A DNA stretch of 64,000 nucleotides. Source: Actinokineospora xionganensis (GTDB lineage: Bacteria; Actinomycetota; Actinomycetes; Mycobacteriales; Pseudonocardiaceae). The notes beneath the pieces were generated by a model that was not told the origin of the DNA, made no database searches, and worked only from the letters and a program-made list of their open reading frames with translations. Shown here piece by piece: positions 1-54,439 of this stretch (positions are counted from its first letter, which is position 1; every line of letters begins with the position of its first letter). The DNA lies in NCBI RefSeq assembly GCF_014323725.1, contig NZ_JABVED010000001.1, forward strand, positions 602,505 to 666,504, read 5' to 3'. Both the position numbers and the translations under genes were made by a program.

Positions 1-259
1 TCGATCGTCTGCGGTCGAACCGGTCCACCAGCACGCCCGCGGGGATGCCGAAGACCACGTAGGGCAGGGTGAGCGCCATGGTGACCCCGGCGATCAGCCG
101 GGCGTCGTCGGTGAGCTTGCTGGCCATCAGTGGTGCGGCGGCGAGCGAGATGCCGTCACCCGCCCCCGACAGGCCCGCGGCCAGCCAGAACCGGTTGAAC
201 CCAGAGCCCAACCTTGGCTTGCCCGCCACCGCGGTGCTCTCCGCGCCCCCGCCGCTCAT
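1..259 (-). CDS. MFS transporter, N-terminal part (runs off window)
   Basis: Only the first 86 or so codons lie in the window. After a short Gly-rich start the translation shows a hydrophobic helix (FNRFWLAAGLSGAGDGISL), a second segment near residues 55-75, and a DRFDRRR-type loop. That loop matches the conserved cytoplasmic loop between helices 2 and 3 of major facilitator superfamily exporters. The ATG shares 4 bp (ATGA) with the stop of the upstream nitroreductase gene, so it is the seventh cistron of the minus-strand operon. In that context export of the operon's product is the natural inference. The substrate cannot be read from the sequence. Confidence 0.75.
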   Translation of the reverse strand, partial: MSGGGAESTAVAGKPRLGSGFNRFWLAAGLSGAGDGISLAAAPLMASKLTDDARLIAGVTMALTLPYVVFGIPAGVLVDRFDRRRS

Positions 260-837
260 CGCGCGGTCACCAGGTTCGTCCTGACCGCGGGCAGGACGCT
301 CAGGTGCGCCCGCGCGTCGCCGACCGGGCGCTCGGGCTTGGGCGCGTGCGGGTCCGGCCTGCCGATGTACAGCCAGCCGAGCAGCTTCTCCTGCGGTGCC
401 GCCGCCATGACCGCCCGAACCTGCGCGGCATCGACCAGTGGGCCGGTCCGCCAGATCGATGACCAGCCCGCCTCGTGCAGCAGCAGGCCGAGGTGGGTGA
501 CCACCGCGGTCGCCGCGGCGAGCTGCTCCCATTCGGGAACCTTGGGGTGTGGCTTCGGGACGAGGACCACGCCGAGCAGCAGCGGCGCGCGCAGCGCCTT
601 GGCCGCCGCCCGTTCCCGTTCCGCACCGGTCGCGCCCTGGGCGTCGGCCAGCGCGTCGCCCAGCCGCTGCCGGGCCGGGCCGCGCAGCACCACCATCCGC
701 CACGGCCGCAGGGCGGCGTGGTCGGGGGCGTTCATGGCCAGCGCGAGCAGATCGGTGATCTCGTCGTCGCTGGGAGCGTCGTCGAGGATGCGACCGCCGC
801 TGCGGCGGGTGCGCAGTAGGTCCGCGACTCCGGTCAC
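256..837 (-). CDS. nitroreductase family protein (YdjA/RutE-like)
   Basis: A 193-residue protein of the FMN-dependent nitroreductase fold, about the normal size for the compact YdjA-like branch. The N-terminus carries the typical RRS...R pattern (LLRTRRSGGRIL, residues 8-19) followed by APDHAALRPWRMVVL, the segment that contacts FMN phosphate and sets up the dimer interface. The LLHEAGWSSIWRTG segment near residue 125 is the usual second FMN-binding stretch. Such proteins reduce nitro groups, quinones or activated double bonds with NAD(P)H. Start and stop overlap the neighbouring genes by 4 bp on both sides. Here it is probably a tailoring reductase or dehydrogenase; the substrate is unknown. 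Confidence 0.8.
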   Translation of the reverse strand: MTGVADLLRTRRSGGRILDDAPSDDEITDLLALAMNAPDHAALRPWRMVVLRGPARQRLGDALADAQGATGAERERAAAKALRAPLLLGVVLVPKPHPKVPEWEQLAAATAVVTHLGLLLHEAGWSSIWRTGPLVDAAQVRAVMAAAPQEKLLGWLYIGRPDPHAPKPERPVGDARAHLSVLPAVRTNLVTAR

Positions 838-1511
838 GAGGGCTTCCCCGCCGCGATTCGCCGGGCGACGTCGTTGTACCCGTGCTCGGCGCGGGCCACC
901 CGCAGCGGCTTGCCCGCCCGGACGTCGGCCAGCACCAGCTGCTCCATCGCCGCCACCCGCGACACGGTGTCCACCACATCGTCGACGAGGTTCGCGGGTA
1001 CGACGACGACACCGCTGCCGTCGGCGGCGACCAGGTCACCCGGCCGTACGGTGATCTGGTCGCCGTCGGCACCGACGGTCACCGGCTGCTGCGTGGCGAC
1101 CATTCGCACCCGGTTCTTGCCCGAGCGCATGAACGTCCCACGCGTCCACATCGAGTACCCGATGTCGCGGATCCCGTCGATGTCGCGGCAGTAGCCGTCG
1201 ATCACGGTCCCCGCGACGCCCTTGGCGACGGCGACCTCGGCGAGGATGTCACCCCACACCGTGCAGTGCCTGCCCTCGTTGGCGATGACGATGACCGCGC
1301 CCGACGGCACGTCGTCGATGAAGTCCGCGGCGGGCGCGGGCACGCCGTCGGCGACCGGCTCGAACCGGACGGTGAACGCGGGGCCGACGACCATGCCGGA
1401 GCCGGAGAGCCGTCGCACACCCCAGAGCGTGCTGGACACGCCGGCGAGGTCGAGGGCGTCGCTGACCGCCGCGGTGCCGTGGTGGGCCAGGGGGTGGCCG
1501 GTGTCGCTCAT
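834..1511 (-). CDS. RraA-like aldolase/decarboxylase family protein
   Basis: A 225-residue protein of the RraA / 4-hydroxy-4-methyl-2-oxoglutarate aldolase fold. The signature is clear: WGDILAEVAVAKGVAG (residues 86-101) followed by VIDGYCRD, with Arg109-Asp110 as the conserved RD pair that binds pyruvate carboxylate and the divalent metal in the aldolase branch. The family includes HMG/CHA aldolases, oxaloacetate decarboxylases and the RNase E inhibitor RraA. Location inside a biosynthetic operon argues for a metabolic rather than an RNase-inhibitor role, plausibly a C-C bond formation, cleavage or decarboxylation. Overlaps of 4 bp with both neighbours indicate translational coupling. Confidence 0.75.
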   Translation of the reverse strand: MSDTGHPLAHHGTAAVSDALDLAGVSSTLWGVRRLSGSGMVVGPAFTVRFEPVADGVPAPAADFIDDVPSGAVIVIANEGRHCTVWGDILAEVAVAKGVAGTVIDGYCRDIDGIRDIGYSMWTRGTFMRSGKNRVRMVATQQPVTVGADGDQITVRPGDLVAADGSGVVVVPANLVDDVVDTVSRVAAMEQLVLADVRAGKPLRVARAEHGYNDVARRIAAGKPS

Positions 1512-2866
1512 CGGTCACCACCGGCGATGACGTGGACAGCCAACTTCTGGCCTCCTTGGAATATGTTGATCTTCGAGTTTCGGCTGGCCTTCGAGCCGAA
1601 GCCCGCGATCCGCCCGCCGAACAGGTAGGTGTCGAGGCTGATCGGCATGGCGTGCACCTGGTCGGTGCCCGCTTCGACGACCGGGTACGTGGTGGGGGCG
1701 ACCTTGCGCTGCACCACGTGCCCCTCGCGCAGCGCGTGGGCCACCATGGCCCGCCAGTGATCGGGCGGGCAGTCGAAACCGATGGTGACGCCGTCGCCGC
1801 GGATGTCGTAGTGCTGCTTGAGCACGAAGCCGCGGGGGTCTTCGAGCAGGCGCTCGGCCAGTGGTGTGCCGTCGTCGTCGACGGCGTCGGAGGTCAGCTT
1901 GCGCGCCCAGGGCAGCAGCGCGGTCACGAGTGCCCGCTCCTGGGCGGTGAACAAGTGGGCGAACGCGGGCTCCTGAACGAACGCGAGCGTCAACTTGTTC
2001 TCGGCCACGTACCGCGACCCGAAGGGGTTCACGTGCACCAGGGCCGTGTCGCGGACCGCGCGCTCCCACAGCCCGACGAACCCGCTGTCGGCGCAGTAGG
2101 CGCGCCACGAGTCAGTGTTGACCTTGTTCCAGGCCAGGTCCACGCGTTTGCCGTCGAACCGGACGCCCGCGCCGTCGACTTCGATCGCCCGCGGGTCCGC
2201 GAGGAACGCGTCGATCCCGACTGCCCGCATCCGCGCGACCAGCTCCACGCTCTCGACGTTGGGCGAGCCCGCGGGCTGCAGGACGGCGATGTGCTCCGGA
2301 TTGTCGCAGCGACCCGACTCGCGTGCCGCCTGGCGCAGCGCGTCGGTGAAGCGGTCCTCACCGGTGTAGGTGAGGTCCGTGGGTGCGGGCGCGTCGGACA
2401 ACGTGCGCCCGATCGCGGCGACGGTCTCGTTGACCCGGGCGGTGAACAGCGTGCCCGCGGGCGAGTCCGCGTTGTTCTCCAACACTTTCAGCCGCTCGGT
2501 ACCCGCCTCCAGGTACCCGTCGAGTCGGCACACCCATGGGGCGTCCCCGAGCGCGCGGTCGGCGTCGATGAGCCGGTCGGCAGCCGCGCCCAGCCCGTAG
2601 AACGCGCGGACCTCCGCGTGCTCGCGGTACCGGGCGACCACGGTGCCGAGCAGCTCGACGTAACGGGCCAGCGGCTCGGCCAGCAGTTCCGCGCGGTCGT
2701 GCCGGACGAACACCGGGACCGGCGAGAGCGGGAACGCCTTGTTCCGGAACACCGGTGCGTCGGTCAGCGCCGCGGCGACAACCGTGCCGGTCCGCTCCGG
2801 GTGCGCCACGGCCGCGTGGGTGGCCAGCAGCGCCGCGGGCCAGTCGAGCAGTCCGGCCACGGTCAT
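1508..2866 (-). CDS. circularly permuted ATP-grasp (glutathionylspermidine synthase-like) protein
   Basis: A 452-residue protein starting at the ATG that overlaps the aminotransferase stop (ATGA). An upstream in-frame start at 2977 would lie wholly inside that gene and is disfavoured. The segment KVLENNADSPAGTLF (about residues 131-145) is the E-x-N-x-D-x-P-x-G motif of circularly permuted ATP-grasp ligases. Later blocks include AENKLTLAF, FVLKQHYDIRGDGV (nucleotide-binding Lys) and a C-terminal glycine-rich stretch, SRNSKINIFQGGQKLA. Family members join a carboxylate to an amine through an acyl phosphate. The protein therefore probably forms an amide or peptide bond within the pathway. Substrates are unknown. 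Confidence 0.65.
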   Translation of the reverse strand: MTVAGLLDWPAALLATHAAVAHPERTGTVVAAALTDAPVFRNKAFPLSPVPVFVRHDRAELLAEPLARYVELLGTVVARYREHAEVRAFYGLGAAADRLIDADRALGDAPWVCRLDGYLEAGTERLKVLENNADSPAGTLFTARVNETVAAIGRTLSDAPAPTDLTYTGEDRFTDALRQAARESGRCDNPEHIAVLQPAGSPNVESVELVARMRAVGIDAFLADPRAIEVDGAGVRFDGKRVDLAWNKVNTDSWRAYCADSGFVGLWERAVRDTALVHVNPFGSRYVAENKLTLAFVQEPAFAHLFTAQERALVTALLPWARKLTSDAVDDDGTPLAERLLEDPRGFVLKQHYDIRGDGVTIGFDCPPDHWRAMVAHALREGHVVQRKVAPTTYPVVEAGTDQVHAMPISLDTYLFGGRIAGFGSKASRNSKINIFQGGQKLAVHVIAGGDR

Positions 2867-3819
2867 CTCGGGCCGCCCGCGGGCAACGCGAGCTCGATGG
2901 GGGTCGGCGCGCAGCGGCCGCGGGCTTGGTCGAAGTAGGCGTCGATGAGCGCGGTGGTCACCGGGCACACGGGCCACCTGGACACCGGCACGCCCGCCAC
3001 CTCGCGCACCGGGCCGAACTCCAGTCCGGTCCCACAGAGCACGACCTCGTCGGCGGCGCGCAGCCGCTCCTCGGTGACCGCGTCCTCGACCGCGCTGAAA
3101 CCCAGTGCGCGCGCCGCGGCCAGCACCCAGGCCCGGGTCACCCCGGGCAGCACGTTGTCGGACAGCCGCGGTGTGACGACCCGGTTTCCGTCCTCGACAA
3201 GGAACAGCGTCGCCGTGGGGGCTTCGCTGATCAGACCGTCGGCCGTGCGCAGCACGCAGGAGTCGAACCCCGCCCGCTTCGCCTCGGTGAGGGCGAGCCT
3301 CGGGCCGGCGTAGGCGGAGATGTTCTTGGCCGCGCTGGGGAACACCGCGTCCGACGGCCGTTGCCAGTCGCTGACCGCGAGCCGGACGCCCTCGCCCTTG
3401 GCGAGCCAGCGCTTGCGGCCGGACGGGGTGATCGTCACCGTGAGCGCGGACTCCGCCGCTTCATCGATACCGCCTGCGTTCACCGCGCTGACCGCGACGC
3501 GGACGTACCCGTCCTCGGCGACGCCCTGGGTGGCGATGAGCTCGTCGATGATCGCGGGCACCTCGTCGCACAGGGACTCGTCGAGCTCCATGGTCCGGCA
3601 GGAGTGACGCAACCGGTCGAGATGCGGCCCCAGCGCCCACACCGCGACGCCGCCCGAGTCCTGCTGGTAGACGCGGATTCCCTCGAACACCGACACGCCG
3701 TACCGCAGCGCGATGCTGGCCACAGGCAGCGTCGCCTGCTCGCGCGGCACCAACTCGCCGCGGTGGTGGGCCAGCGGCCAGACGGGGGTCTTCGTCTGGC
3801 CGCCGACGGCGAAGGTCAC
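2863..3819 (-). CDS. class IV (branched-chain/D-amino-acid type) aminotransferase
   Basis: A 318-residue PLP enzyme of fold type IV, the normal size for IlvE-like or D-alanine transaminase proteins. Landmarks are [15 protein letters not shown] (residues 37-51), the catalytic lysine in SAAKNISAY (Lys165), and [12 protein letters not shown], whose Glu199 contacts the PLP pyridine nitrogen. NVLPGVTR follows as the phosphate-binding loop. It should exchange amino and keto groups between a 2-oxo acid and an amino acid. In this operon a 2-oxo acid made by the aldolase at 4561-5565 would be a logical acceptor, but that is inference. It overlaps its neighbours by 4 bp at both ends. Confidence 0.85.
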
Positions 3820-4568
3820 TGACCGTAGCGGAAGATGGGCTCCGCCGGGTCGTACGAGGTCGACAGGATCATGTCGAAGTGGCGGTGCCGCAGCTCGAGC
3901 GCGTTGGCCAGCGCGGCGATCGCGTTCTCCTTGAGCTGCGGGGTGTCGCAGTAGCGGTGAAGCAGTTCGCGGGCCGCGGCGGCGTGCTCGTCCTCCAGCT
4001 CGCTGACCGCGTCCTCACCCTCGTCGGCCGAGGCGTGGTGCACGAAGAACTCGTAGCCCTTCTCCGGCAGGCCGTAGACGTCGCGCATCACCGAGAGCAT
4101 GCTTTTGCCGTCGCCGCCGACGATCGGCGGCTGGCCCTCCATGAGCAGCAGCACCGAGGCCACGCCCTCGGTGAAGTGGGTGCCGCCGTTGCAGACCCGC
4201 ACGTTGTGCTCGATGACCGCGGCGGTCTCGGGCGCGACCGGCGGGTTCTCCAGGTCCGAGGCGGTCAGGCCGACCGCGGCGCCGAAATCGGCGAACGTGT
4301 CGAGGTGGCGCCCGGAGTTCGACAGCGCACCGGTCTCCTCCTCGTAGATGTTCTCCACCAACAGCACGCGCAGGCGGTAGTCCTCGATCCGGGAGGCGAT
4401 GCCCAGGATGTTGCGGGTCCAGAAGCTCTTGATCGGCCAGCGGTGCAGCACGAAGTTCTGCAGCAGCCGCTCGGTGGCCTTGCCACCGAGGATCGTCTGG
4501 TACAGCTCGCTGGTCATCTTCTTGCGCTCGCCGATCATGCGGTCGAGCTCGGCGACGAAGTCAGTCAT
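3816..4568 (-). CDS. haem-oxygenase-like diiron oxygenase (HDO/CADD-like), TenA/PqqC fold
   Basis: A 250-residue all-helical protein. The segment [20 protein letters not shown] (residues 71-90) fits the E...H iron-ligand pattern of haem-oxygenase-like diiron enzymes (CADD, BesC, SznF central domain, UndA). LLMEGQPP supplies a second helix carboxylate (Glu144), and [10 protein letters not shown] supplies the later ligand helix (His178, Asp182). At the place where the family usually has a last histidine (H-x3-D-x2-H) this protein has Glu185. Known relatives perform N-oxygenation, C-C cleavage or oxidative decarboxylation of amino acids and fatty acids. It is translationally coupled to the aldolase (8-bp overlap) and the aminotransferase (4-bp overlap). 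Confidence 0.75.
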
Positions 4569-5565
4569 GGATCTGGGTGTTCCTTTCGAGGTGGTTCTCA
4601 GCCCCGCACGCGGTTGCCGCCGATATCGCGGTCGTGCGCGTCCGTTCGGTGAGCGCTTGGACGGCCGCGTCGTAGCCCTGGGTGGCGACCAGGTCGTAGA
4701 AGTGGTCCGCTCCGTCGAGATTGACGTCGAGCATGCCGGTGAGCACCGATTTCGAGGTGTCGTCGGCGAGCATCCGCAATTGGGTGGCCAGGGTGGTTCG
4801 GTCGGCCGCGATCGGGTCGAAACGCAGTTTCGCCCCGTGTCGCACGATCAGGTGCGCGACGATGACCTCCAGCCGCAGGTTGCCGCCGCCCTTGCCGACG
4901 CCCCCGATCGAGGCGTCGACCGCTGTCGCCCCCGCGGTCAGCGCGGCCTTGGCGTTGCCGTAGGCCAGGCCCAGATTGTCGTGCGCGTGGAAGCCGACCG
5001 GCACCTCGCTCGCCCCGACCGCGGCGGCCACCAGGGTGGACACCCTCTCCGAGTCGAGGCTGCCGTTCGAGTCGGCGAGGTAGACGACATGGGCGCCCGC
5101 GGCGGCGCAGGCGGCGGTGGCCGCGGCGACCTCGTCCGGGGAGCGCTCACTGACCCTGGTGAGGTTCATGGCCACATCCAGGCCCGCCGCGCGCGCGGCG
5201 GCCACGTAGGGCTCGGCCCTCGTGATCGAACCGCCCGCGACGAGCACGCGCGCCATCGACACGCCCTGGTGCGGCAGTTCGGCGATCCGGTCGAGCGACA
5301 CTTCGCCGGGCCGCACCATCACCGCGAGCGCGGGCCGCTCGGCCACGGCTGCCAATGCGGCCAGGTAGGCGGGCGGGCAACTCGCCGAAGGCCTGCGGGC
5401 GTCGTGTTGGTCGCGCAGATAGCCGACCTCGGCGCAGTTGACACCGACCAGGCCGACGGTGCGCACGATGGACTCGGCCTCGCCGAGAGTCCAACCGTGC
5501 CCGTTGACATAACCGCCGTCACGCAATGTGACATCAAGAAGAATTGACACCGGACTCGCGATCAT
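4561..5565 (-). CDS. HMGL-like aldolase (4-hydroxy-2-oxovalerate aldolase-type)
   Basis: About 334 residues. The N-terminal [14 protein letters not shown] motif (Asp11, Arg15, Asp16) is the metal/pyruvate-binding signature of the DRE-TIM/HMGL family, of the DmpG-like type with a second Gly. [11 protein letters not shown] (His193, His195, Asp196) completes the divalent-metal site, and the [13 protein letters not shown] stretch is the usual catalytic-loop region. The enzyme should condense or cleave a pyruvate-derived unit with an aldehyde or acyl partner. No acylating aldehyde dehydrogenase is present, so it is not a normal meta-cleavage pathway gene. I chose ATG 5565; a GTG at 5583 is an alternative. 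It is the first gene of the operon. Confidence 0.8.
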
Positions 5566-5693
5566 TGTGTCGAATAGCCGCACTCGAAAAAGTGCAGGCG
5601 GAAAAATACGAATTCACCCCGAGCCCCCGAAGCCCGGGATGATGATAGTCACGGTCAGGGTGCCACACAAGCGTGTCCCCCATCACCCACCAT

Positions 5694-42112: not shown

Positions 42113-42490
42113 GTGGGGGTCGATGTGACGGTGGTGCCGGGAACGAGCAGGTTCGACCCGGATGACCCCGGCTGGCGAGATCAGGTCGCGACGCTGTACA
42201 CCGCGCTTCGCGAGGAGGTCACGACACCGTCGGTGCGCCACGAGGTGATGCCGAACGCCAAGGGCACACTGGACACCGTGGTCATCGCGCTGGGCTCGTC
42301 CGGGGCGCTGACCGCGGCCGTGGCGTGCTTCCGGTCCTGGCTGGCCAGGGACAAGACCAGGACCGTCACCATCACCTGGACCGACGACTCCGGCAAGGAG
42401 CAGCGCATCACGCTGACCGGCGAGAACATCGACCGGGCGTCGCTGCAAGCACTCGCCAACGCCGTGAGCGGCCGGTTCGGGAGCAGGTGA
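42113..42490 (+). CDS. effector-associated constant component EACC1-like protein
   Basis: 125 residues from GTG 42113, which is 7 nt after GGAGGGGCGG; GTG 42092 is an alternative. The pattern VATLYTALREEVTTPSV...GTLDTVVIALGSSGALTAAVACFRSWLA, continuing RTVTITWTDDSG and a C-terminal NIDRASLQALANAV, matches the EACC1 family. It has one short hydrophobic helix (TVVIALGSSGALTAAVACF) and a compact beta tail. EACC1 proteins are predicted constant partners of variable effectors in actinobacterial conflict systems. Its stop overlaps the caspase-like gene's start (TGATG), so the two are co-expressed. Confidence 0.75.
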   Translation: MGVDVTVVPGTSRFDPDDPGWRDQVATLYTALREEVTTPSVRHEVMPNAKGTLDTVVIALGSSGALTAAVACFRSWLARDKTRTVTITWTDDSGKEQRITLTGENIDRASLQALANAVSGRFGSR

Positions 42491-44556
42491 TGCCGCGTTA
42501 CCGAGCACTGCTGATCGGCAACGCGGACTTCCCCGAAGACCCCCACGAACTCCGCACCCTGAACGGTCCGCTGACCGACATCAGGACACTCGCCGAGGTG
42601 CTGACCGACGACGAGATAGGCCTGTTCGACAGGGACGACGTCCAGAAACTCGCCAACCGTGAGGTCCAGCCGCTGCGGGAGCAACTCGACGAGTTCCTCA
42701 CCACCGCGCACCGCGACGACGTGCTGCTGCTCTATTACAGCGGCCACGGCAGGCTCGACCTCGACAACCGGCTCCACCTGTGCGCGAAGGACACCAGGAC
42801 TGCCAAACTGCACTCGACGGCGCTCCCGGCCGACGACGTCAACAAGCTGATCACCAGGTGTGCGGCAACGAGCGTCATCGTCGTGCTGGACTGCTGCAAC
42901 AGCGGTGCGTTCAAGGGCGCGGACATCTTCCGGACCATCACCACGAAACAGCACCCGAGGGCGGCCCGCCGCCTCGTCGAGGCGATCGACGTCCTCAGGG
43001 GCACGCCGAACAGAGCAGGCACGAGTGGCCGGGGCAGGTATGTGCTCGCCAGCAGCAGATCCACCCAGCTCGCGCTGGACACCACCAGGAAGGGCGAGCT
43101 CAGCCCGTTCACCGCGCAACTCGTGCGTGGCCTGCGCGAGGCCGACGCCGACGGGTACGTGACCGTGACCGACCTCTACCGGCAGGTGCACCGGTGGCTC
43201 ACCGAGGCCAGCGGACCGACCCCGCAGCTGCGGTTCTCCGGTGAGGGCGATGTGATCATCGCTCGCGGGGCGAGCCTGCCACGTCCCGAGCCACCACCGC
43301 CGACTCCGCGGCAGACGGAGCCGGTGCCGAGCACGACCTGGGTGGCGCACCGGGCACGCACCGGCGGCGTCGACCGCATCCTGGAGGTCACCGACGGCAC
43401 CCGGCGACATACCATCGAATACCGGTCCCTCCCAGCGCAGCGGGCCGAAGTACTGGTCGACGGGCGTTCGATCCACAAGGGCTCCAACCAGTTCGAGCTG
43501 ACCTGCCTGCTCGGCGACACCGAAGCGTGCCTCGGGGTCACCGAATCCGACTTCCGGCTGACCATCGACGACCGGCGGATCTACGCCCAGCGCAGCGCGG
43601 CCCACGGCTCACCCGACCGGCGGGAGGAACTGGCCGCCGCGATCCGCGCGACGCTGCTCGCCGACGACGTCGAGTGGAAAGGGATCCGGCTCGGCGTCGT
43701 GCCGGATATCAAGGTGCGGGACTTCAACTCGGTGCGGCCGGTGACCAGCCGGTCGAGTCGCGTGCTCTCCTGCGGCCCGGTCATCGCGGTCGCCACGGTC
43801 AAGAGCACCCAGGATCGGGTCTGGTTCACCGACCGCGCCGTGCACCTGCGCGGCAAGTCATACGTGGTCGTGCCCTACGAGGAGCTCGCGGAGGCAACGG
43901 TCTCCAGCCGCGGAGACTCATTGGAAGTCGGGGACAAGAAGGTCGACTTCTCCTACTTGACCAACTTGGACGCGATAGCCGGGCTGGTCAACGAAGTCAA
44001 GAAAACGGTGGTGTACCAGGACACCGGTTTCGGCGAGCCGCCCCCGGTCAACAGGCACAGCGGCTTCTCCGAAGACCACGAAGGCGACTGGTACAGCTCT
44101 GTCGCCATGGTGATATCGGGCTTCGTCGCATTTCAGGGCCTTCATGGTCTTGGCAAGGAAGACTTCGAAGGGGGGATATTGCGCCTCGGCCTCGGCTTGA
44201 TCGGGCTCGTCATCATGTTTCCGTTCTTCGCGGTCGGTCCACTCGCGACGGCCTGCGGGATCAGGCCGGGCCTCGGCCGGGCCATGATCCTCACCGCCGT
44301 CTACACGTTGGGCTTCAGTGCCTGCCAAACCTGGATTCCCGTCTTCTCCCAGACCGCGGAGGACGACCCGTTGCCCTTGACCGGGTGGACCGTCCGGATC
44401 GGTGACTCGCTGGCACTCGCCATCGGCGGCGTGGACACCGGGCCACTCGGGCAGCAACCACGGGTATGGGGCGCGCTGCTCCTCGCCGCAGTAGCCTACG
44501 TCGCGGTCGTCCCAGCTGCACTGATCCGGCACCGACAGCGGTATCAACCGGTCTAA
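42490..44556 (+). CDS. caspase-like (C14) protease with PH-like region and C-terminal membrane helices
   Basis: 688 residues. The peptidase domain (1-260) has LLYYSGHGRLD with catalytic His86 and VVLDCCNSGAF with catalytic Cys136, plus the usual RYVLASSRSTQLA block. A proline-rich linker (265-282) follows. Two beta-rich regions come next: about 285-400, and 425-505 (IAVATVKSTQDRVWFTDRAVHL... LDAIAGLVNEVKK), the latter resembling a bacterial PH-like domain. Residues 536-554, 564-587, 596-616 and 659-678 are probable membrane helices. With EACC1 upstream this is a predicted conflict or regulated-cell-death module acting at the membrane. Substrate and trigger are unknown. Confidence 0.8.
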   Translation: MPRYRALLIGNADFPEDPHELRTLNGPLTDIRTLAEVLTDDEIGLFDRDDVQKLANREVQPLREQLDEFLTTAHRDDVLLLYYSGHGRLDLDNRLHLCAKDTRTAKLHSTALPADDVNKLITRCAATSVIVVLDCCNSGAFKGADIFRTITTKQHPRAARRLVEAIDVLRGTPNRAGTSGRGRYVLASSRSTQLALDTTRKGELSPFTAQLVRGLREADADGYVTVTDLYRQVHRWLTEASGPTPQLRFSGEGDVIIARGASLPRPEPPPPTPRQTEPVPSTTWVAHRARTGGVDRILEVTDGTRRHTIEYRSLPAQRAEVLVDGRSIHKGSNQFELTCLLGDTEACLGVTESDFRLTIDDRRIYAQRSAAHGSPDRREELAAAIRATLLADDVEWKGIRLGVVPDIKVRDFNSVRPVTSRSSRVLSCGPVIAVATVKSTQDRVWFTDRAVHLRGKSYVVVPYEELAEATVSSRGDSLEVGDKKVDFSYLTNLDAIAGLVNEVKKTVVYQDTGFGEPPPVNRHSGFSEDHEGDWYSSVAMVISGFVAFQGLHGLGKEDFEGGILRLGLGLIGLVIMFPFFAVGPLATACGIRPGLGRAMILTAVYTLGFSACQTWIPVFSQTAEDDPLPLTGWTVRIGDSLALAIGGVDTGPLGQQPRVWGALLLAAVAYVAVVPAALIRHRQRYQPV

Positions 44557-50593: not shown

Positions 50594-53500
50594 TCAGCCG
50601 CAGAGGAACCGGGCGGAACCCCAGTCGGCGTGGTCGTTGCCCACACCGTCACCACCGTCGGACACCACCAACCGGACCTCCTGCGCCCCGCCGATGTCCG
50701 CCGCCAGCGAGAACGTCGCCGTGTCCGGCCGCATCACCGGCGACTGAGCCACCTGCCTGCCGTCCGCCAACACCGTGAACTGCACCGACCCGCGGCTCGC
50801 CTGCCTGTCATCCACACCGACCTGCGCGGTGAACGACGCGCAGTTGCCGCCCAGGTAGTAGACGACGGTGCTCGGCGCGTGCGTGCCCAACCCCTTCTCG
50901 TGCACGACCCCGTTCAACGTGATCGGACCACCGTCACCGGCACCCGACTCCCCGTTGGACCGGTCCCGCTCGACCGGGCCCCACCCGTTGCTCGCCGAGA
51001 GCCACCCATGGTCGCCGGCCCACACGTCCACCGTCGGCGGCGCGGGCACCGTCTCGATCCGCAGCACGTTCGTCACCGCCCGCGGACCGTCCTTCACCTC
51101 GTAGGCGGTGTTCGCGACCACGTCGTACACCGCGGTCGCCGCGTCAGCGGGCGGTGTGACCGCCCACTGCGTACTCACCGACGCACCCGACGCCACCGAC
51201 TCGAACACCGCCGGACCCGTCGCCGCGACCTGCCAACCCTGCGGCACCGTCAACGCCATCGACACCCCGGTCGCCGCGCCCGACTCACCGTTGCGGAACG
51301 TCGTCGTCACCGTGTTCGCCTTGCCCGGCAGCAACTTCTGCGTCGCCGAGGCGACATCCACGCTGCCGCACGCGTCCGCACTGTCCGCCTTCCCGAGGTC
51401 CTCCACCGCGAAGTCGTCCAACGCGAACTCGACCTGGTCACCGTTGGGACCCAGCCGCTTGAGGCCCACCCAGTAGTCACCGCACGCGCCCGCCACAAAC
51501 TCCTGCACATGCCGGGCCGCGGTCGTCTGCTTCCCGAACGGGGTCGTCCCGACCTCCTTGGTGCCCGCGGGACCGTCCACACCGAGCGTCCACCCGTACG
51601 CGCCCGCCATGGCGTTCTCGTAGTCGAAGCTCACCCGGTACCGGTGACCCGGCAGGAACCGCACCGTCGCAGGGGTGGTCCGGTAGCTGATCCCATGGTC
51701 GTACTCATACGACTTCAGGCTCCACTTCCCCGAGATCACATCGTCGATCACCTTCCCGTTCCACCCGCGCTGCGTGAACGGCGCGTGCAGCTCCGACAGG
51801 TGCGTGTTCGCATCCCCGATCGGCAGCACACCCCGGTAGAACGGACCCCAACCCGCGTCGACGTCCTCGAAGTCCCACGACGTCACCCGACCCGGCGCCG
51901 CGGGCCGCTTCATCGCCACGACCCGCGCGTTGTCGAACCTCACCACACCCTGCCCGGGCGCCACCCGCAGCGACAACGTCACCGCGCCACCGACCCGCAC
52001 GTCGAAGAACACGCGCACCCGCTGGAACCGCGTCTGGAGCTTCTCATCCGACGCCGTGGTGTTCACCAACGTGGAACGGTCCACAAACGTCGACTCCGGG
52101 GCACCCGACCGCGGATTCACCCCGACGAACACCGGGCGGGTCCGCCCCTGCTCCACCTCGACATCGACCGACGCCGCATAGCTGCCCGGCGCGAGACCCG
52201 CGAGGTCCTGGCTGATCACCGTGTTGCCGTGCCCGGACACGACAGCCTCGTACTGCCCGCGCGCGTTGCGCTCCACCTTCGCCGCACCCGGGTCGCCCGC
52301 GACCTGCCACGCCCGGAAGTCGCCGTAGTTGAACCCGGGGTCGCGCAGCGGGCCACCCTCGCCGTACCGCACATCAGGGACAGCCACCGCTGAACCCGAC
52401 TCCAGCACATACGCCGTGTTCGGCTCCGCGGTCAGCCTCACCTGACCACCCTCCACCGCCACCGTGCCCGCCGAGACCCGACCCGTGTCCGTCAGCTTCG
52501 ACACCGTCAGCGAAGCGGCACCAGTGAACGGCGCCGGGACCTGCCACGTGCTCTGACCACCCTTGGCGTTGTAGTGGTACAGCTTGTCCGGCGCCGCCGG
52601 GTTCCACGGCAACAGGTACGCGTCACCATCGGCGACCTTCGCCGAACCCGCGAAGATCTTCCGGTCCGCCGCCGACGTGCCCGTCACCCGCACACCCTTG
52701 TCCAGCACGATCTCCTCGGCACCCCACCGCTGGATCGGGAAGTGCTGCAGGAACTTCACCGGCAGGTTGTTGCCGAACACGTTGCGGGAGAACGCGCCGT
52801 AGTCCACCTCGCCGGTCCAGCCCTCGAACTCCACGATCTGCGCGCTGCCCAGCAGCGGGTTCGAGATGTACACATCACGGCGGTGGTTATCGACGAACCG
52901 CATGATCTGCGAGTTGACGCCCTTGAAATCGGCGCCGCCGTAGTCGATGTCGGCCGACCAGTGCGTCCACAGGGAATCCCGCACGAACCGGTGCGACCAC
53001 TCCGTGCCGGTCTCCCAGCCCAGGGCCCGAACCTCCCGGGCGAGCCGGTCCGCCGTCCAGCCCGACTCCCGGAACACGTCCCAGTACAGGAAGTCCAGCT
53101 TCCCGCCGGTCTCCTCGGCCAACTGCCTGAGCCGCTTCTGGATGTCGCCGCTGATCAGGTCCCGACGCTGATCGATCCGGTAGGACTGGTCCATCCAGGC
53201 CCACTGCTCGTTGTTCTTGTCGACCAGCGTCTCGGAGAACGACCGCGCCTCCGGGTACGACTCCGTCGCGTTGACGTGCACCCCGAAGTCCGCGTTGTAC
53301 ACCGAGCCCTTGTCCAGCAACGTCTTCAGGTCGGCCAGACCACCGGCTCGGGTGTTGTAGTTGCCGCCGTAGTCCGGGTGCGCCGCGTCATGGCCCTCCG
53401 ACTGGTAGCCCTTGAGAATCGCCAGCTGACCGAGCCCATCGGTGGCCAGGCTGATCCGCTTCGTCTCGTCGAGGGTCTTCGCGAACGGGTTGGTCGCCAT

Positions 53501-54439
53501 CGACGCGATGTTGAACGGGATCCGCTGCACCACCCGATCGGCGACCTTCTCACCACCCTTGGGCGCGTAGGCGATCTCGCGCAGCGACAACGCCGCGTCC
53601 TGCCAGTCCACCACGTTGTCACCATTGCGTTCCGGGGTGACCGCGATCTTCACCTCCGGCAGCGGCTCGGTGTCCGCCGCCGCCGCACCCGCGGCCCGGT
53701 ACGTCCACTGCCCACTCCACACCCCGACCACCGTGTCGGCGCCGGACTTGCGGGCCTGCCGCCAGAAATGCGCGTTGTCGTTCACCGTCGGCCCAGCGGG
53801 CTTGTCATAGACCGAGTTGGTCTCCAACGCCGCGGCCAGCTTTCCCGTGGACACCAACGTGAAGTACGAGCCGATCGGCGCCGCGTCCGCGGGCGTGGCC
53901 GGGGTGACACCGTAGATCGTGTCCCCGCGCCGGTTGATCGACAGGTCGACCTTCGCCGCCGCGACCTGCGCACCCGGGTCCGTGCCGCGCACCGACACCA
54001 AGTCGTGGTCGGGAATCTCGATCGTGTGGACCCGCGACGCCTCGGTGTCGCGCACCGCGTCGATCCGGAACGTCGTCACCCGGCGGTCAACCGACAGGCT
54101 CGCGTCCAGCCGAACACCGGGCAGCTGCGGGAACGTCAACCGATAGGACACCTTGCGACCATCGGAGACCGGGACGCCGTCCAGCTTCGGCTGCTGGGCC
54201 TTCCCGTCGATCACCACACTGGTCACCGCCTCGGCACGCCCGGACAGGGTCGCGCCCGAAGCGTTGTCGGCATAGGAGATCACCCGCGGGAAATCGGCCG
54301 CGACGGTGACCGTGAGCTCAGCGGAACGAACAGTGAGCGACGCGGGCTGGGCGCCCGCGACGGGAACTGCGATCAGACCCGCGCCTAACGCGAGAACTGC
54401 CGCGGCGGCGACGCGCGCCTGCCGGTGGGGAAGGGGCAC
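50594..54439 (-). CDS. secreted endo-alpha-N-acetylgalactosaminidase (GH101)
   Basis: 1281 residues from GTG 54439 (GTAGGAG upstream) with a Sec signal (ARVAAAAVLALGAGLIAVPVAGA). The GH101 TIM barrel spans about 300-650. KLDFLYWDVFRESGW carries the nucleophile-position Asp454, and GWETGTEWSHRF carries the acid/base-position Glu480, by analogy with Streptococcus GH101. Beta-sandwich carbohydrate-binding parts follow (about 700-1000), then a NEW3-like domain (LPGKANTVTTTFRNGES) and a C-terminal NPCBM-type domain. It would release core-1 Gal-GalNAc disaccharide from mucin-type O-glycoproteins. It is divergent from a ROK regulator. Confidence 0.88.
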   Translation of the reverse strand: MPLPHRQARVAAAAVLALGAGLIAVPVAGAQPASLTVRSAELTVTVAADFPRVISYADNASGATLSGRAEAVTSVVIDGKAQQPKLDGVPVSDGRKVSYRLTFPQLPGVRLDASLSVDRRVTTFRIDAVRDTEASRVHTIEIPDHDLVSVRGTDPGAQVAAAKVDLSINRRGDTIYGVTPATPADAAPIGSYFTLVSTGKLAAALETNSVYDKPAGPTVNDNAHFWRQARKSGADTVVGVWSGQWTYRAAGAAAADTEPLPEVKIAVTPERNGDNVVDWQDAALSLREIAYAPKGGEKVADRVVQRIPFNIASMATNPFAKTLDETKRISLATDGLGQLAILKGYQSEGHDAAHPDYGGNYNTRAGGLADLKTLLDKGSVYNADFGVHVNATESYPEARSFSETLVDKNNEQWAWMDQSYRIDQRRDLISGDIQKRLRQLAEETGGKLDFLYWDVFRESGWTADRLAREVRALGWETGTEWSHRFVRDSLWTHWSADIDYGGADFKGVNSQIMRFVDNHRRDVYISNPLLGSAQIVEFEGWTGEVDYGAFSRNVFGNNLPVKFLQHFPIQRWGAEEIVLDKGVRVTGTSAADRKIFAGSAKVADGDAYLLPWNPAAPDKLYHYNAKGGQSTWQVPAPFTGAASLTVSKLTDTGRVSAGTVAVEGGQVRLTAEPNTAYVLESGSAVAVPDVRYGEGGPLRDPGFNYGDFRAWQVAGDPGAAKVERNARGQYEAVVSGHGNTVISQDLAGLAPGSYAASVDVEVEQGRTRPVFVGVNPRSGAPESTFVDRSTLVNTTASDEKLQTRFQRVRVFFDVRVGGAVTLSLRVAPGQGVVRFDNARVVAMKRPAAPGRVTSWDFEDVDAGWGPFYRGVLPIGDANTHLSELHAPFTQRGWNGKVIDDVISGKWSLKSYEYDHGISYRTTPATVRFLPGHRYRVSFDYENAMAGAYGWTLGVDGPAGTKEVGTTPFGKQTTAARHVQEFVAGACGDYWVGLKRLGPNGDQVEFALDDFAVEDLGKADSADACGSVDVASATQKLLPGKANTVTTTFRNGESGAATGVSMALTVPQGWQVAATGPAVFESVASGASVSTQWAVTPPADAATAVYDVVANTAYEVKDGPRAVTNVLRIETVPAPPTVDVWAGDHGWLSASNGWGPVERDRSNGESGAGDGGPITLNGVVHEKGLGTHAPSTVVYYLGGNCASFTAQVGVDDRQASRGSVQFTVLADGRQVAQSPVMRPDTATFSLAADIGGAQEVRLVVSDGGDGVGNDHADWGSARFLCG

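What the first reader, a model, noticed from the sequence alone, without database searches (positions are those of the whole stretch)
1..5583. Seven-gene, fully overlapping operon that looks like an undescribed small-molecule pathway
Gene order is HMGL/DmpG-type aldolase, haem-oxygenase-like diiron enzyme, class IV aminotransferase, circularly permuted ATP-grasp ligase, RraA-like aldolase, nitroreductase, MFS exporter. Every junction overlaps by 4 bp (8 bp at the first), seen directly. The families together can build a 2-oxo acid, aminate it, oxidise it at N or C, ligate it and export it. I know of no described cluster with this combination, and there is no NRPS, PKS or standard marker gene, so a typical genome-mining screen could miss it. 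A non-proteinogenic amino acid or N-oxygenated dipeptide-like product is my guess.
Basis: partly seen in the sequence, partly recalled or inferred. Interest (0 to 1): 0.85.

Follow-up and report, generated by a model that had tools for sequence, protein, structure and literature searches.

The report
Conserved uncharacterised small-peptide pathway operon
A run of overlapping bacterial genes encodes what looks like an uncharacterised route to a small peptide-like compound whose four-gene core recurs in distant bacteria, and in some of them it travels with a second copy of a lysine and cell-wall biosynthesis enzyme, which gives a concrete lead to what the compound does.

Summary
In detail: six complete genes and the start of a seventh lie on the minus strand with 8, 4, 4, 4, 4, 4 bp overlaps. 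The operon continues three genes beyond the window: an M20 hydrolase meeting the DapE equivalog model, a second ligase (D2) and an ATP-grasp ligase distantly related to DdaF.

The aldolase, diiron oxidase, class IV aminotransferase and ligase recur together, in that order, in 19 of 20 loci from Actinomycetota, Pseudomonadota, Nostoc and Chloroflexota; the twentieth is cut by its contig end. RraA, nitroreductase and exporter are variable. So the conserved unit is four to five genes, not seven.

The ligase matches no Pfam or NCBIfam model. Its predicted fold is the homoglutathione-synthetase type, shared with YgiC and the E-64 ligase Cp1B. [quoted passage not shown]

The extra DapE is specific: of 297 sampled family genomes only this one has two copies.

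Best reading: NRPS-independent assembly of a (pseudo)peptide from an aldol-derived amino acid. Product, substrates and bioactivity are not shown. Open-literature searches found no description; a published screen of about 25 HDO plus ATP-grasp clusters may list it.

The parts
4561..5583 (-). Gene A: HMGL/DmpG-type pyruvate aldolase homologue (340 aa from GTG 5583; true start may lie inside)
   Evidence: PF00682 E 9.6e-26; TIGR03217 115 bits, below its cut-off 286; solved relatives 4jn6, 3dxi, 1nvm; H185, H187 and GKGGGN invariant in 15 of 15 rows, TLRDGGY in 10 of 15, the other five being called with later starts
3816..4568 (-). Gene B: haem-oxygenase-like dimetal oxidase (250 aa), the most conserved protein of the cassette
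2863..3819 (-). Gene C: class IV aminotransferase, branched-chain type (318 aa)
   Evidence: PF01063 E 2.1e-44; best NCBIfam branched-chain transaminase 187.8 bits, under cut-off 279; 5ce8 and E. coli IlvE aligned, with the AAK PLP-lysine context and FEGIR motif kept (roles recalled)
1508..2866 (-). Gene D: homoglutathione-synthetase-type (circularly permuted) ATP-grasp ligase (452 aa)
834..1511 (-). Gene E: RraA-like aldolase/decarboxylase (225 aa)
   Evidence: PF03737 E 8.6e-33; nearest solved protein 3k4i, uncharacterised, E 3.1e-47
256..837 (-). Gene F: YdjA-type NAD(P)H nitroreductase (193 aa), variable accessory
   Evidence: PF00881 E 1.5e-15; PRK10828 117.7 bits, below cut-off 183; solved relatives 7tmf, 3bm1
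1..259 (-). Gene G: first 86 codons of a 424-aa MFS-type transporter that continues outside the window; three further operon genes follow there (DapE-type M20 hydrolase, ligase D2, ATP-grasp distantly related to DdaF)

Best explanation
This is a dedicated, NRPS-independent pathway for a small (pseudo)peptide built on an unusual amino acid. Inferred order: A joins pyruvate (or a near analogue) to an aldehyde to give a 4-hydroxy-2-oxo acid, with E assisting as a second pyruvate-enolate aldolase/decarboxylase; C aminates the 2-oxo acid; B, a dimetal oxidase, oxidises the amino acid or the peptide; D joins it to a partner through an acyl phosphate; in this genome D2 and the DdaF-related ligase add further units, F supplies a flavin redox step and G exports the product. 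The DapE-type M20 enzyme is most likely a processing hydrolase acting on an N-acyl or peptide intermediate, with self-protection as the main alternative. Shown: gene order, families, predicted folds, conservation of active-site residues, co-inheritance, and the linkage of the second DapE to the exporter and D2. Inferred: every chemical step, substrate and the product.
For: A-B-C-D in the same order in 19 of 20 loci from several phyla; L046 is cut by its contig end. High-scoring A (343 bits or more), B (334 or more) and D (515 or more) matches occupy the same 5 of 297 family genomes, next best 226, 46 and 218 bits. Distance matrices correlate at r 0.81-0.94, 0 of 2000 permutations for each A-D pair. 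B keeps a full HDO ligand set in 16 of 16 rows. D has the fold of homoglutathione synthetase, YgiC and Cp1B, a pseudodipeptide-forming ATP-grasp enzyme of E-64 biosynthesis; its invariant R114, E130, N132, K350 and D354 fit the ATP/Mg/substrate sites of that family (mapping recalled). The 413-aa ATP-grasp exceeds PRK07206 (333 vs 302) and is distantly related to dapdiamide synthase DdaF (181 vs cut-off 840). Published precedent for an HDO plus two ATP-grasp ligases making a tripeptide antimetabolite: mangotoxin.
Against: No substrate was tested and no product is known. A differs from DmpG at the catalytic His position (Tyr instead), so a Claisen or another lyase reaction is possible. E is absent from L036, L037 and L044 within the fetched flank, and F from 12 of 20 loci, so neither is needed for the core chemistry everywhere. 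Weaker A-like and D-like proteins are common (A profile in 212 of 297 genomes at E 1e-25; D profile in 51 of 297 at E 1e-10), so the co-occurrence rests on the gap in score. The A-like/E-like pair also occurs in four other operons with an Iso_dh-like protein and no match to the D family, so A and E alone do not imply a peptide. Saccharothrix luteola (L035) and G172 (L048) carry the core with E but without the exporter, D2 or DapE next to it.
Confidence: 0.6

Rival explanations
1. The second DapE is a self-protection copy of the target: the product is an antimetabolite of the succinyl-diaminopimelate (lysine and cell-wall) pathway, for instance an N-acyl amino acid that mimics N-succinyl-DAP, and the cluster DapE is insensitive to it.
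For: The cluster M20 passes the DapE equivalog (393 vs cut-off 304). At E 1e-90 the own genome shows two DapE and each other row of the 297-genome family sample shows one. In 7 of 9 genomes with the module a housekeeping-type DapE is found besides the cluster copy; 6 genomes with the core but no module have one copy over the cut-off. Cluster copies form one clade, FastTree support 1.0, and keep the invariant residues shared with housekeeping copies, including the metal and catalytic motifs. Nostoc (L045), without DapE in its cluster, has a DapL above cut-off (619 vs 365).
Against: DapE tracks ligase D2 and the G-type exporter in 9 of 9 loci, which suits a tailoring role equally. The Chloroflexota MAG (G699) has only the cluster copy over the cut-off. 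Tistrella and Pseudomonas carry the core without a cluster DapE, and so do the actinomycete loci L035, L041, L042 and L048-L051, though the six of their genomes that were searched depend on a single DapE. No DapD duplicate was found in the genomes checked.
Confidence: 0.2
2. B is a self-sacrificing enzyme like CADD: it cleaves its own Tyr23 to release an aromatic aldehyde that A condenses with pyruvate.
For: CADD and another 4-aminobenzoate synthase (9pj4) are B's nearest solved relatives by sequence profile, and CADD is nearest by fold. Tyr23 is invariant in 21 of 21 B sequences and aligns with the sacrificed tyrosine; 16 other HDO-like proteins of the family, which keep five of the six ligand columns, do not have Tyr there.
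Against: The lysine that donates the amine (Lys152 in CADD, Lys159 in NePabS, essential) has no conserved counterpart; CADD Tyr43, Tyr141 and Tyr170 align with Phe39, Met143 and Phe174 (positions counted by hand). A single-turnover enzyme is an odd choice for a supply pathway.
Confidence: 0.04
3. The operon is catabolic or part of an unusual primary pathway, not a specialised-metabolite cluster.
For: A- and E-like proteins pair in four other operons with an isocitrate/isopropylmalate dehydrogenase-like protein.
Against: Several ligases and an exporter here, patchy distribution (5 of 297 in the family; 1 of 396 in the phylum sample at E 1e-40), swapped accessory genes and NRPS genes beside the core in L041 and L049 are typical of specialised metabolism.
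Confidence: 0.1
4. The product and pathway are already described under names that the open-access searches did not reach.
For: The mangotoxin paper reports at least 25 unique clusters with an HDO and an ATP-grasp ligase, shown in a supplementary figure that could not be read.
Against: Seven full-text searches with different family terms showed no paper with this combination; for most papers they listed only titles and abstract beginnings were seen.
Confidence: 0.12

Closest known systems
Mangotoxin pathway (MboABCDEF, Pseudomonas syringae; PMC13185094, abstract, introduction, results and discussion read)
   Same: An HDO plus two stand-alone ATP-grasp ligases and no NRPS; product is a short modified peptide antimetabolite.
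   Different: Mbo has an arginine deiminase and an Fe2S2 reductase, and no HMGL aldolase, class IV aminotransferase or RraA is described. Its HDO has ligands Glu86 and His89, three apart (from the paper), while B has E77 and H88, eleven apart.
E-64 pathway, ligase Cp1B (PMC12568646, passages read; PDB 9cjn)
   Different: Cp1 makes its warhead with an Fe/2-oxoglutarate enzyme and uses an amide bond synthetase as second ligase; no aldolase, aminotransferase or HDO in the passages seen.
Self-sacrificing p-aminobenzoate synthases CADD and NePabS (PMC11965152, passages read)
   Same: CADD is B's nearest solved relative by profile and fold; same fold, similar ligand set and a tyrosine at the sacrificed position.
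   Different: The amine-donor lysine and three other CADD tyrosines are not conserved in B; NCBIfam CADD model 59 bits against a cut-off of 200. NePabS itself was not compared by sequence under that name.
Nikkomycin side-chain assembly (NikB aldolase, NikK aminotransferase, NikS ATP-grasp; recalled, one search listed one paper on another topic)
   Same: Logic: DmpG-like aldolase makes a 4-hydroxy-2-oxo acid, which is aminated and ligated by an ATP-grasp enzyme (recalled).
   Different: A nucleoside partner and a different aldehyde source there (recalled). Not compared by sequence.
Dapdiamide pathway (DdaF; NCBIfam NF041595)
   Same: The 413-aa ligase outside the window is a distant relative (181 bits).
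   Different: Far below the equivalog cut-off of 840.

Membership tests
Haem-oxygenase-like dimetal oxidase (HDO) superfamily (gene B) | Haem-oxygenase-like helical fold with three His and three carboxylate metal ligands | tested here: met
Self-sacrificing p-aminobenzoate synthase (CADD type) | Sacrificed Tyr, amine-donor Lys and second essential Tyr all present | tested here: not met
   Tyr23 present in 21 of 21, Lys not conserved, second Tyr (NePabS Tyr41, taken to be CADD Tyr43) is Phe39; TIGR04305 59 bits vs cut-off 200.
MboA-type acetylenase | Glu-x2-His metal-ligand spacing | tested here: not met
   B has E77 and H88. MboA itself was not compared by sequence.
MboA-type acetylenase | Fe2S2/flavin reductase partner (MboB) encoded beside it | tested here: inconclusive
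   None among the representatives scanned for the recurrent families of the 20 loci; genes found in one locus only were mostly not scanned.
4-hydroxy-2-oxovalerate aldolase DmpG (gene A) | Equivalog score and catalytic His after the RDG motif | tested here: not met
   115 bits vs cut-off 286; Tyr in place of the His in the alignment with 1nvm and 4jn6; the role of that His is recalled.
Branched-chain aminotransferase IlvE (gene C) | Equivalog score | tested here: not met
   187.8 vs 279 and 172.2 vs 245.55. Fold-type IV family membership is met (PF01063) with the PLP-lysine context kept.
Eukaryotic-type/homoglutathione-synthetase ATP-grasp ligases (gene D) | Fold over the full length with invariant ATP/Mg-site residues | tested here: met
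Succinyl-diaminopimelate desuccinylase DapE, actinobacterial type (M20 gene outside the window) | NCBIfam equivalog TIGR01900 cut-off and metal/catalytic residues | tested here: met
   393.3 vs 304.2; H86, D112, E142, E143, E171, H346 shared by all 13 housekeeping and 9 cluster copies aligned (roles recalled). Activity on succinyl-DAP is not testable here.
Self-resistance gene (target duplication) | Second copy confined to producers | tested here: inconclusive
   Confined to module-bearing genomes in the samples searched, but it also tracks a biosynthetic ligase, and the Chloroflexota genome has no other copy over the cut-off.
Mangotoxin gene cluster | mboA-F gene content | tested here: not met
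   Gene content differs as listed.

The most novel reading that the evidence does not exclude
The operon makes an antibacterial that blocks the succinylase branch of diaminopimelate/lysine biosynthesis at DapE: a GSH-synthetase-type ligase fuses an oxidised, aldol-derived acid or amino acid into an N-acyl amino-acid mimic of N-succinyl-diaminopimelate, and the producer survives through the cluster's own diverged DapE. It would be a natural inhibitor of this enzyme made by a pathway whose core spans phyla.
Probability: 0.17. Interest if true: 0.9.

Novelty: new variant of a known kind. Interest (0 to 1): 0.68.

Why it matters
Stand-alone ATP-grasp pathways make potent warhead peptides (mangotoxin and E-64), and this copy has no NRPS or PKS gene in the operon. 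A four-gene core kept together from Actinomycetota to Nostoc and Chloroflexota points to one conserved piece of chemistry, performed by an HDO whose nearest solved relatives consume their own residues. The linked second DapE makes a target or processing hypothesis directly testable, in a pathway of long-standing antibacterial interest (recalled). D belongs to a ligase group that none of the Pfam or NCBIfam models recognised, so related pathways may be overlooked.

Tried and rejected
Searches that led nowhere: no plasmid record carries B at E 1e-5; full-text searches with family names returned nothing on this combination; one search listed only the mangotoxin paper and a thioamidated-peptide paper. 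A nikkomycin search gave one paper on another topic, so that comparison rests on recall. A search for DapE with self-resistance listed nine papers; I saw only the listing, and none was evidently on DapE inhibition.

Considered and rejected: B as a CADD-type p-aminobenzoate synthase (lysine lost); B as an MboA-type acetylenase (ligand spacing); a LysW-type amino-carrier pathway, because no carrier-like small ORF stood out in the four loci printed (L043, L044, L045, L047); duplication of DapD as evidence for N-succinylation (one DapD over the cut-off in 6 of 9 genomes, none over it in G693, G697 and G699); DapL and DapC-type checks in the Chloroflexota MAG, nothing over the cut-offs, so its route to diaminopimelate stays open. 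A PhzF-like assignment of the L051 member of family f14 found no Pfam match.

Weak points: the gene caller is a home-made codon-usage script; some starts are wrong (five A rows start late) and C was fused with D in L039, so tblastn matches were used for presence counts. Loci were found with B as probe, so B's presence in all 20 is by construction. Absence of a gene means absence from the fetched flank. L047 has frame breaks in B and E, and L033 keeps only a 22-residue match to F; these were described, not mended. G697 also lacks a DapD match although it has both DapE copies, so a missing dapD is only weak evidence for a gap in the M. rosaria draft.

Full report
What is in the window. Six complete genes and the start of a seventh run on the minus strand from 5583 to 1, with junction overlaps of 8, 4, 4, 4, 4 and 4 bp. 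Pfam confirms HMGL-like (A), Haem_oxygenas_2 (B), Aminotran_4 (C), RraA-like (E) and Nitroreductase (F). D matches nothing in Pfam up to E 10 or in NCBIfam up to E 0.001.

The operon is longer than the window. The same strand continues beyond base 1 with an M20 hydrolase (366 aa, 4-bp overlap with G), a second ligase related to D (D2, 469 aa, 22-bp gap) and a 413-aa ATP-grasp ligase (4-bp overlap). A GNAT/FemAB-like gene follows after 72 bp; it is not among the families recurring in the 20 loci.

Recurrence. A scan of one genome per species with B as probe found 15 loci, from Micromonospora, Saccharothrix, Streptomyces, Microbispora, Actinocrinis, Streptantibioticus, Acrocarpospora, Tistrella, Pseudomonas, Nostoc and uncultured Actinomycetota, Pyrinomonadaceae and Chloroflexi. 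Four more came from the window's own family. With the own locus that makes 20. A, B, C and D are all present in 19 of 20, in the same order; the exception, L046, runs off its contig inside A and has A after B. E is intact in 15 and broken in a sixteenth (L047); it is missing within the fetched flank of L036, L037 and L044 and cannot be judged in L046. F is present in 8 and the G-type exporter in 9. Separate searches of 297 family genomes put the best A, B and D matches in the same five genomes with a wide gap to the next match, although weaker A-like and D-like proteins are common (212 and 51 of 297 at the thresholds used) and weaker B-like ones occur in 28 of 297 in all. A phylum sample gave 1 of 396 at E 1e-40, the own genome. 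The cassette is rare but coherent, and the four core proteins share one history: r = 0.81 to 0.94 between distance matrices of A, B, C and D, less for F.

Accessory modules. The G-type exporter, the M20 enzyme and D2 occur together in 9 of 20 loci and in none of the other 11 within the fetched flank; the 413-aa ligase family is in 7 of those 9. Of the seven actinomycete loci without this module, five (L041, L042, L049, L050, L051) carry an enolase-superfamily protein and an MlrC-like protein, with a Rid-family protein in three, a methyltransferase in three and an aminotransferase in three (names from L041 and L042 members). The enolase-superfamily protein is above the menC/OSBS cut-off in L041 and L047 but not in L037. 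L041 and L049 have NRPS genes upstream of A. Nostoc has a penicillin-amidase homologue and a PhzF homologue; Pseudomonas has a BshB-like deacetylase, a RimK-type ligase and a C45 hydrolase; L050 has a GCS2-type ligase upstream. A conserved core with exchanged hydrolases and ligases is what a warhead with variable peptide dressing would look like; this is inference.

The second DapE. The M20 gene exceeds the actinobacterial DapE equivalog cut-off (393 vs 304). The own genome has a second, higher-scoring DapE (498 bits) next to dapD on another contig. In 297 family genomes the own genome shows two copies at E 1e-90 and each other row shows one. Among nine genomes with the module, seven have both copies; Micromonospora rosaria shows only the cluster copy and no dapD over the cut-off, which may be a gap in the draft; the Chloroflexota MAG shows only the cluster copy. 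Six genomes with the core but no module have one copy over the cut-off, and Tistrella has none. Cluster copies are one clade (FastTree support 1.0), 45% identical on average to housekeeping copies against 60-63% within each group, and keep the shared metal and catalytic motifs. Either it processes an intermediate, perhaps one that D2 makes, or it protects the cell; the data do not decide, and core-bearing genomes that live with a single DapE count against protection unless their product differs.

Chemistry. C aligns with IlvE-type transaminases through the PLP-lysine region, so an aliphatic 2-oxo acid is a fair guess for its substrate. A belongs beside DmpG and the uncharacterised 3dxi but has Tyr where DmpG has His. 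A-like and E-like proteins also pair in four other operons of the family with an Iso_dh-like protein (Pfam run on L140 and L143; L141 and L142 read from sequence starts and blastp), which supports a functional link between A and E. I place the pathway among NRPS-independent ATP-grasp peptide pathways as a new variant, with the product open.

Literature. Read: PMC13185094 (abstract, introduction, results, discussion and two of three parts of its reference list), PMC12568646 (passages) and PMC11965152 (passages). The claim that the combination is undescribed rests only in an open-access library, and the supplement showing HDO/ATP-grasp clusters was not readable.

Noticed in passing
window 42233-44556 (+): An 85-aa EACC1 protein overlapping by 4 bp a 689-aa protein with a caspase (Peptidase_C14) domain: looks like an effector-associated conflict or defence gene pair.
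   Followed up: partly
window about 19500-42000: A long run of apparent purine catabolism genes (uricase, an amidohydrolase and a TPP-dependent enzyme confirmed by Pfam; the others read from sequence starts only), apparently continuing to glyoxylate-using enzymes.
   Followed up: partly
window 50594-54283 (-): A large multidomain GH101 endo-alpha-N-acetylgalactosaminidase with NPCBM and NPCBM_assoc domains.
   Followed up: no
L140, L141, L142, L143: Another recurrent operon pairing A-like HMGL and E-like RraA proteins with an Iso_dh protein; in L140 and L143 this is read as one ORF with a MoCF_biosynth domain, which could be an artefact of the gene caller; DUF6282 in L140.
   Followed up: partly
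L039:7675-8433 (-): A second, 62% identical copy of the oxidase B lies divergently upstream of the cluster in Actinocrinis.
   Followed up: no
L082:8097-12563: A D-like ligase (31% identity to the L050 D protein) near an MFS-like exporter and a protein read by eye as YcaO-like in another genome of the family, suggesting the ligase group also serves other peptide pathways.
   Followed up: no
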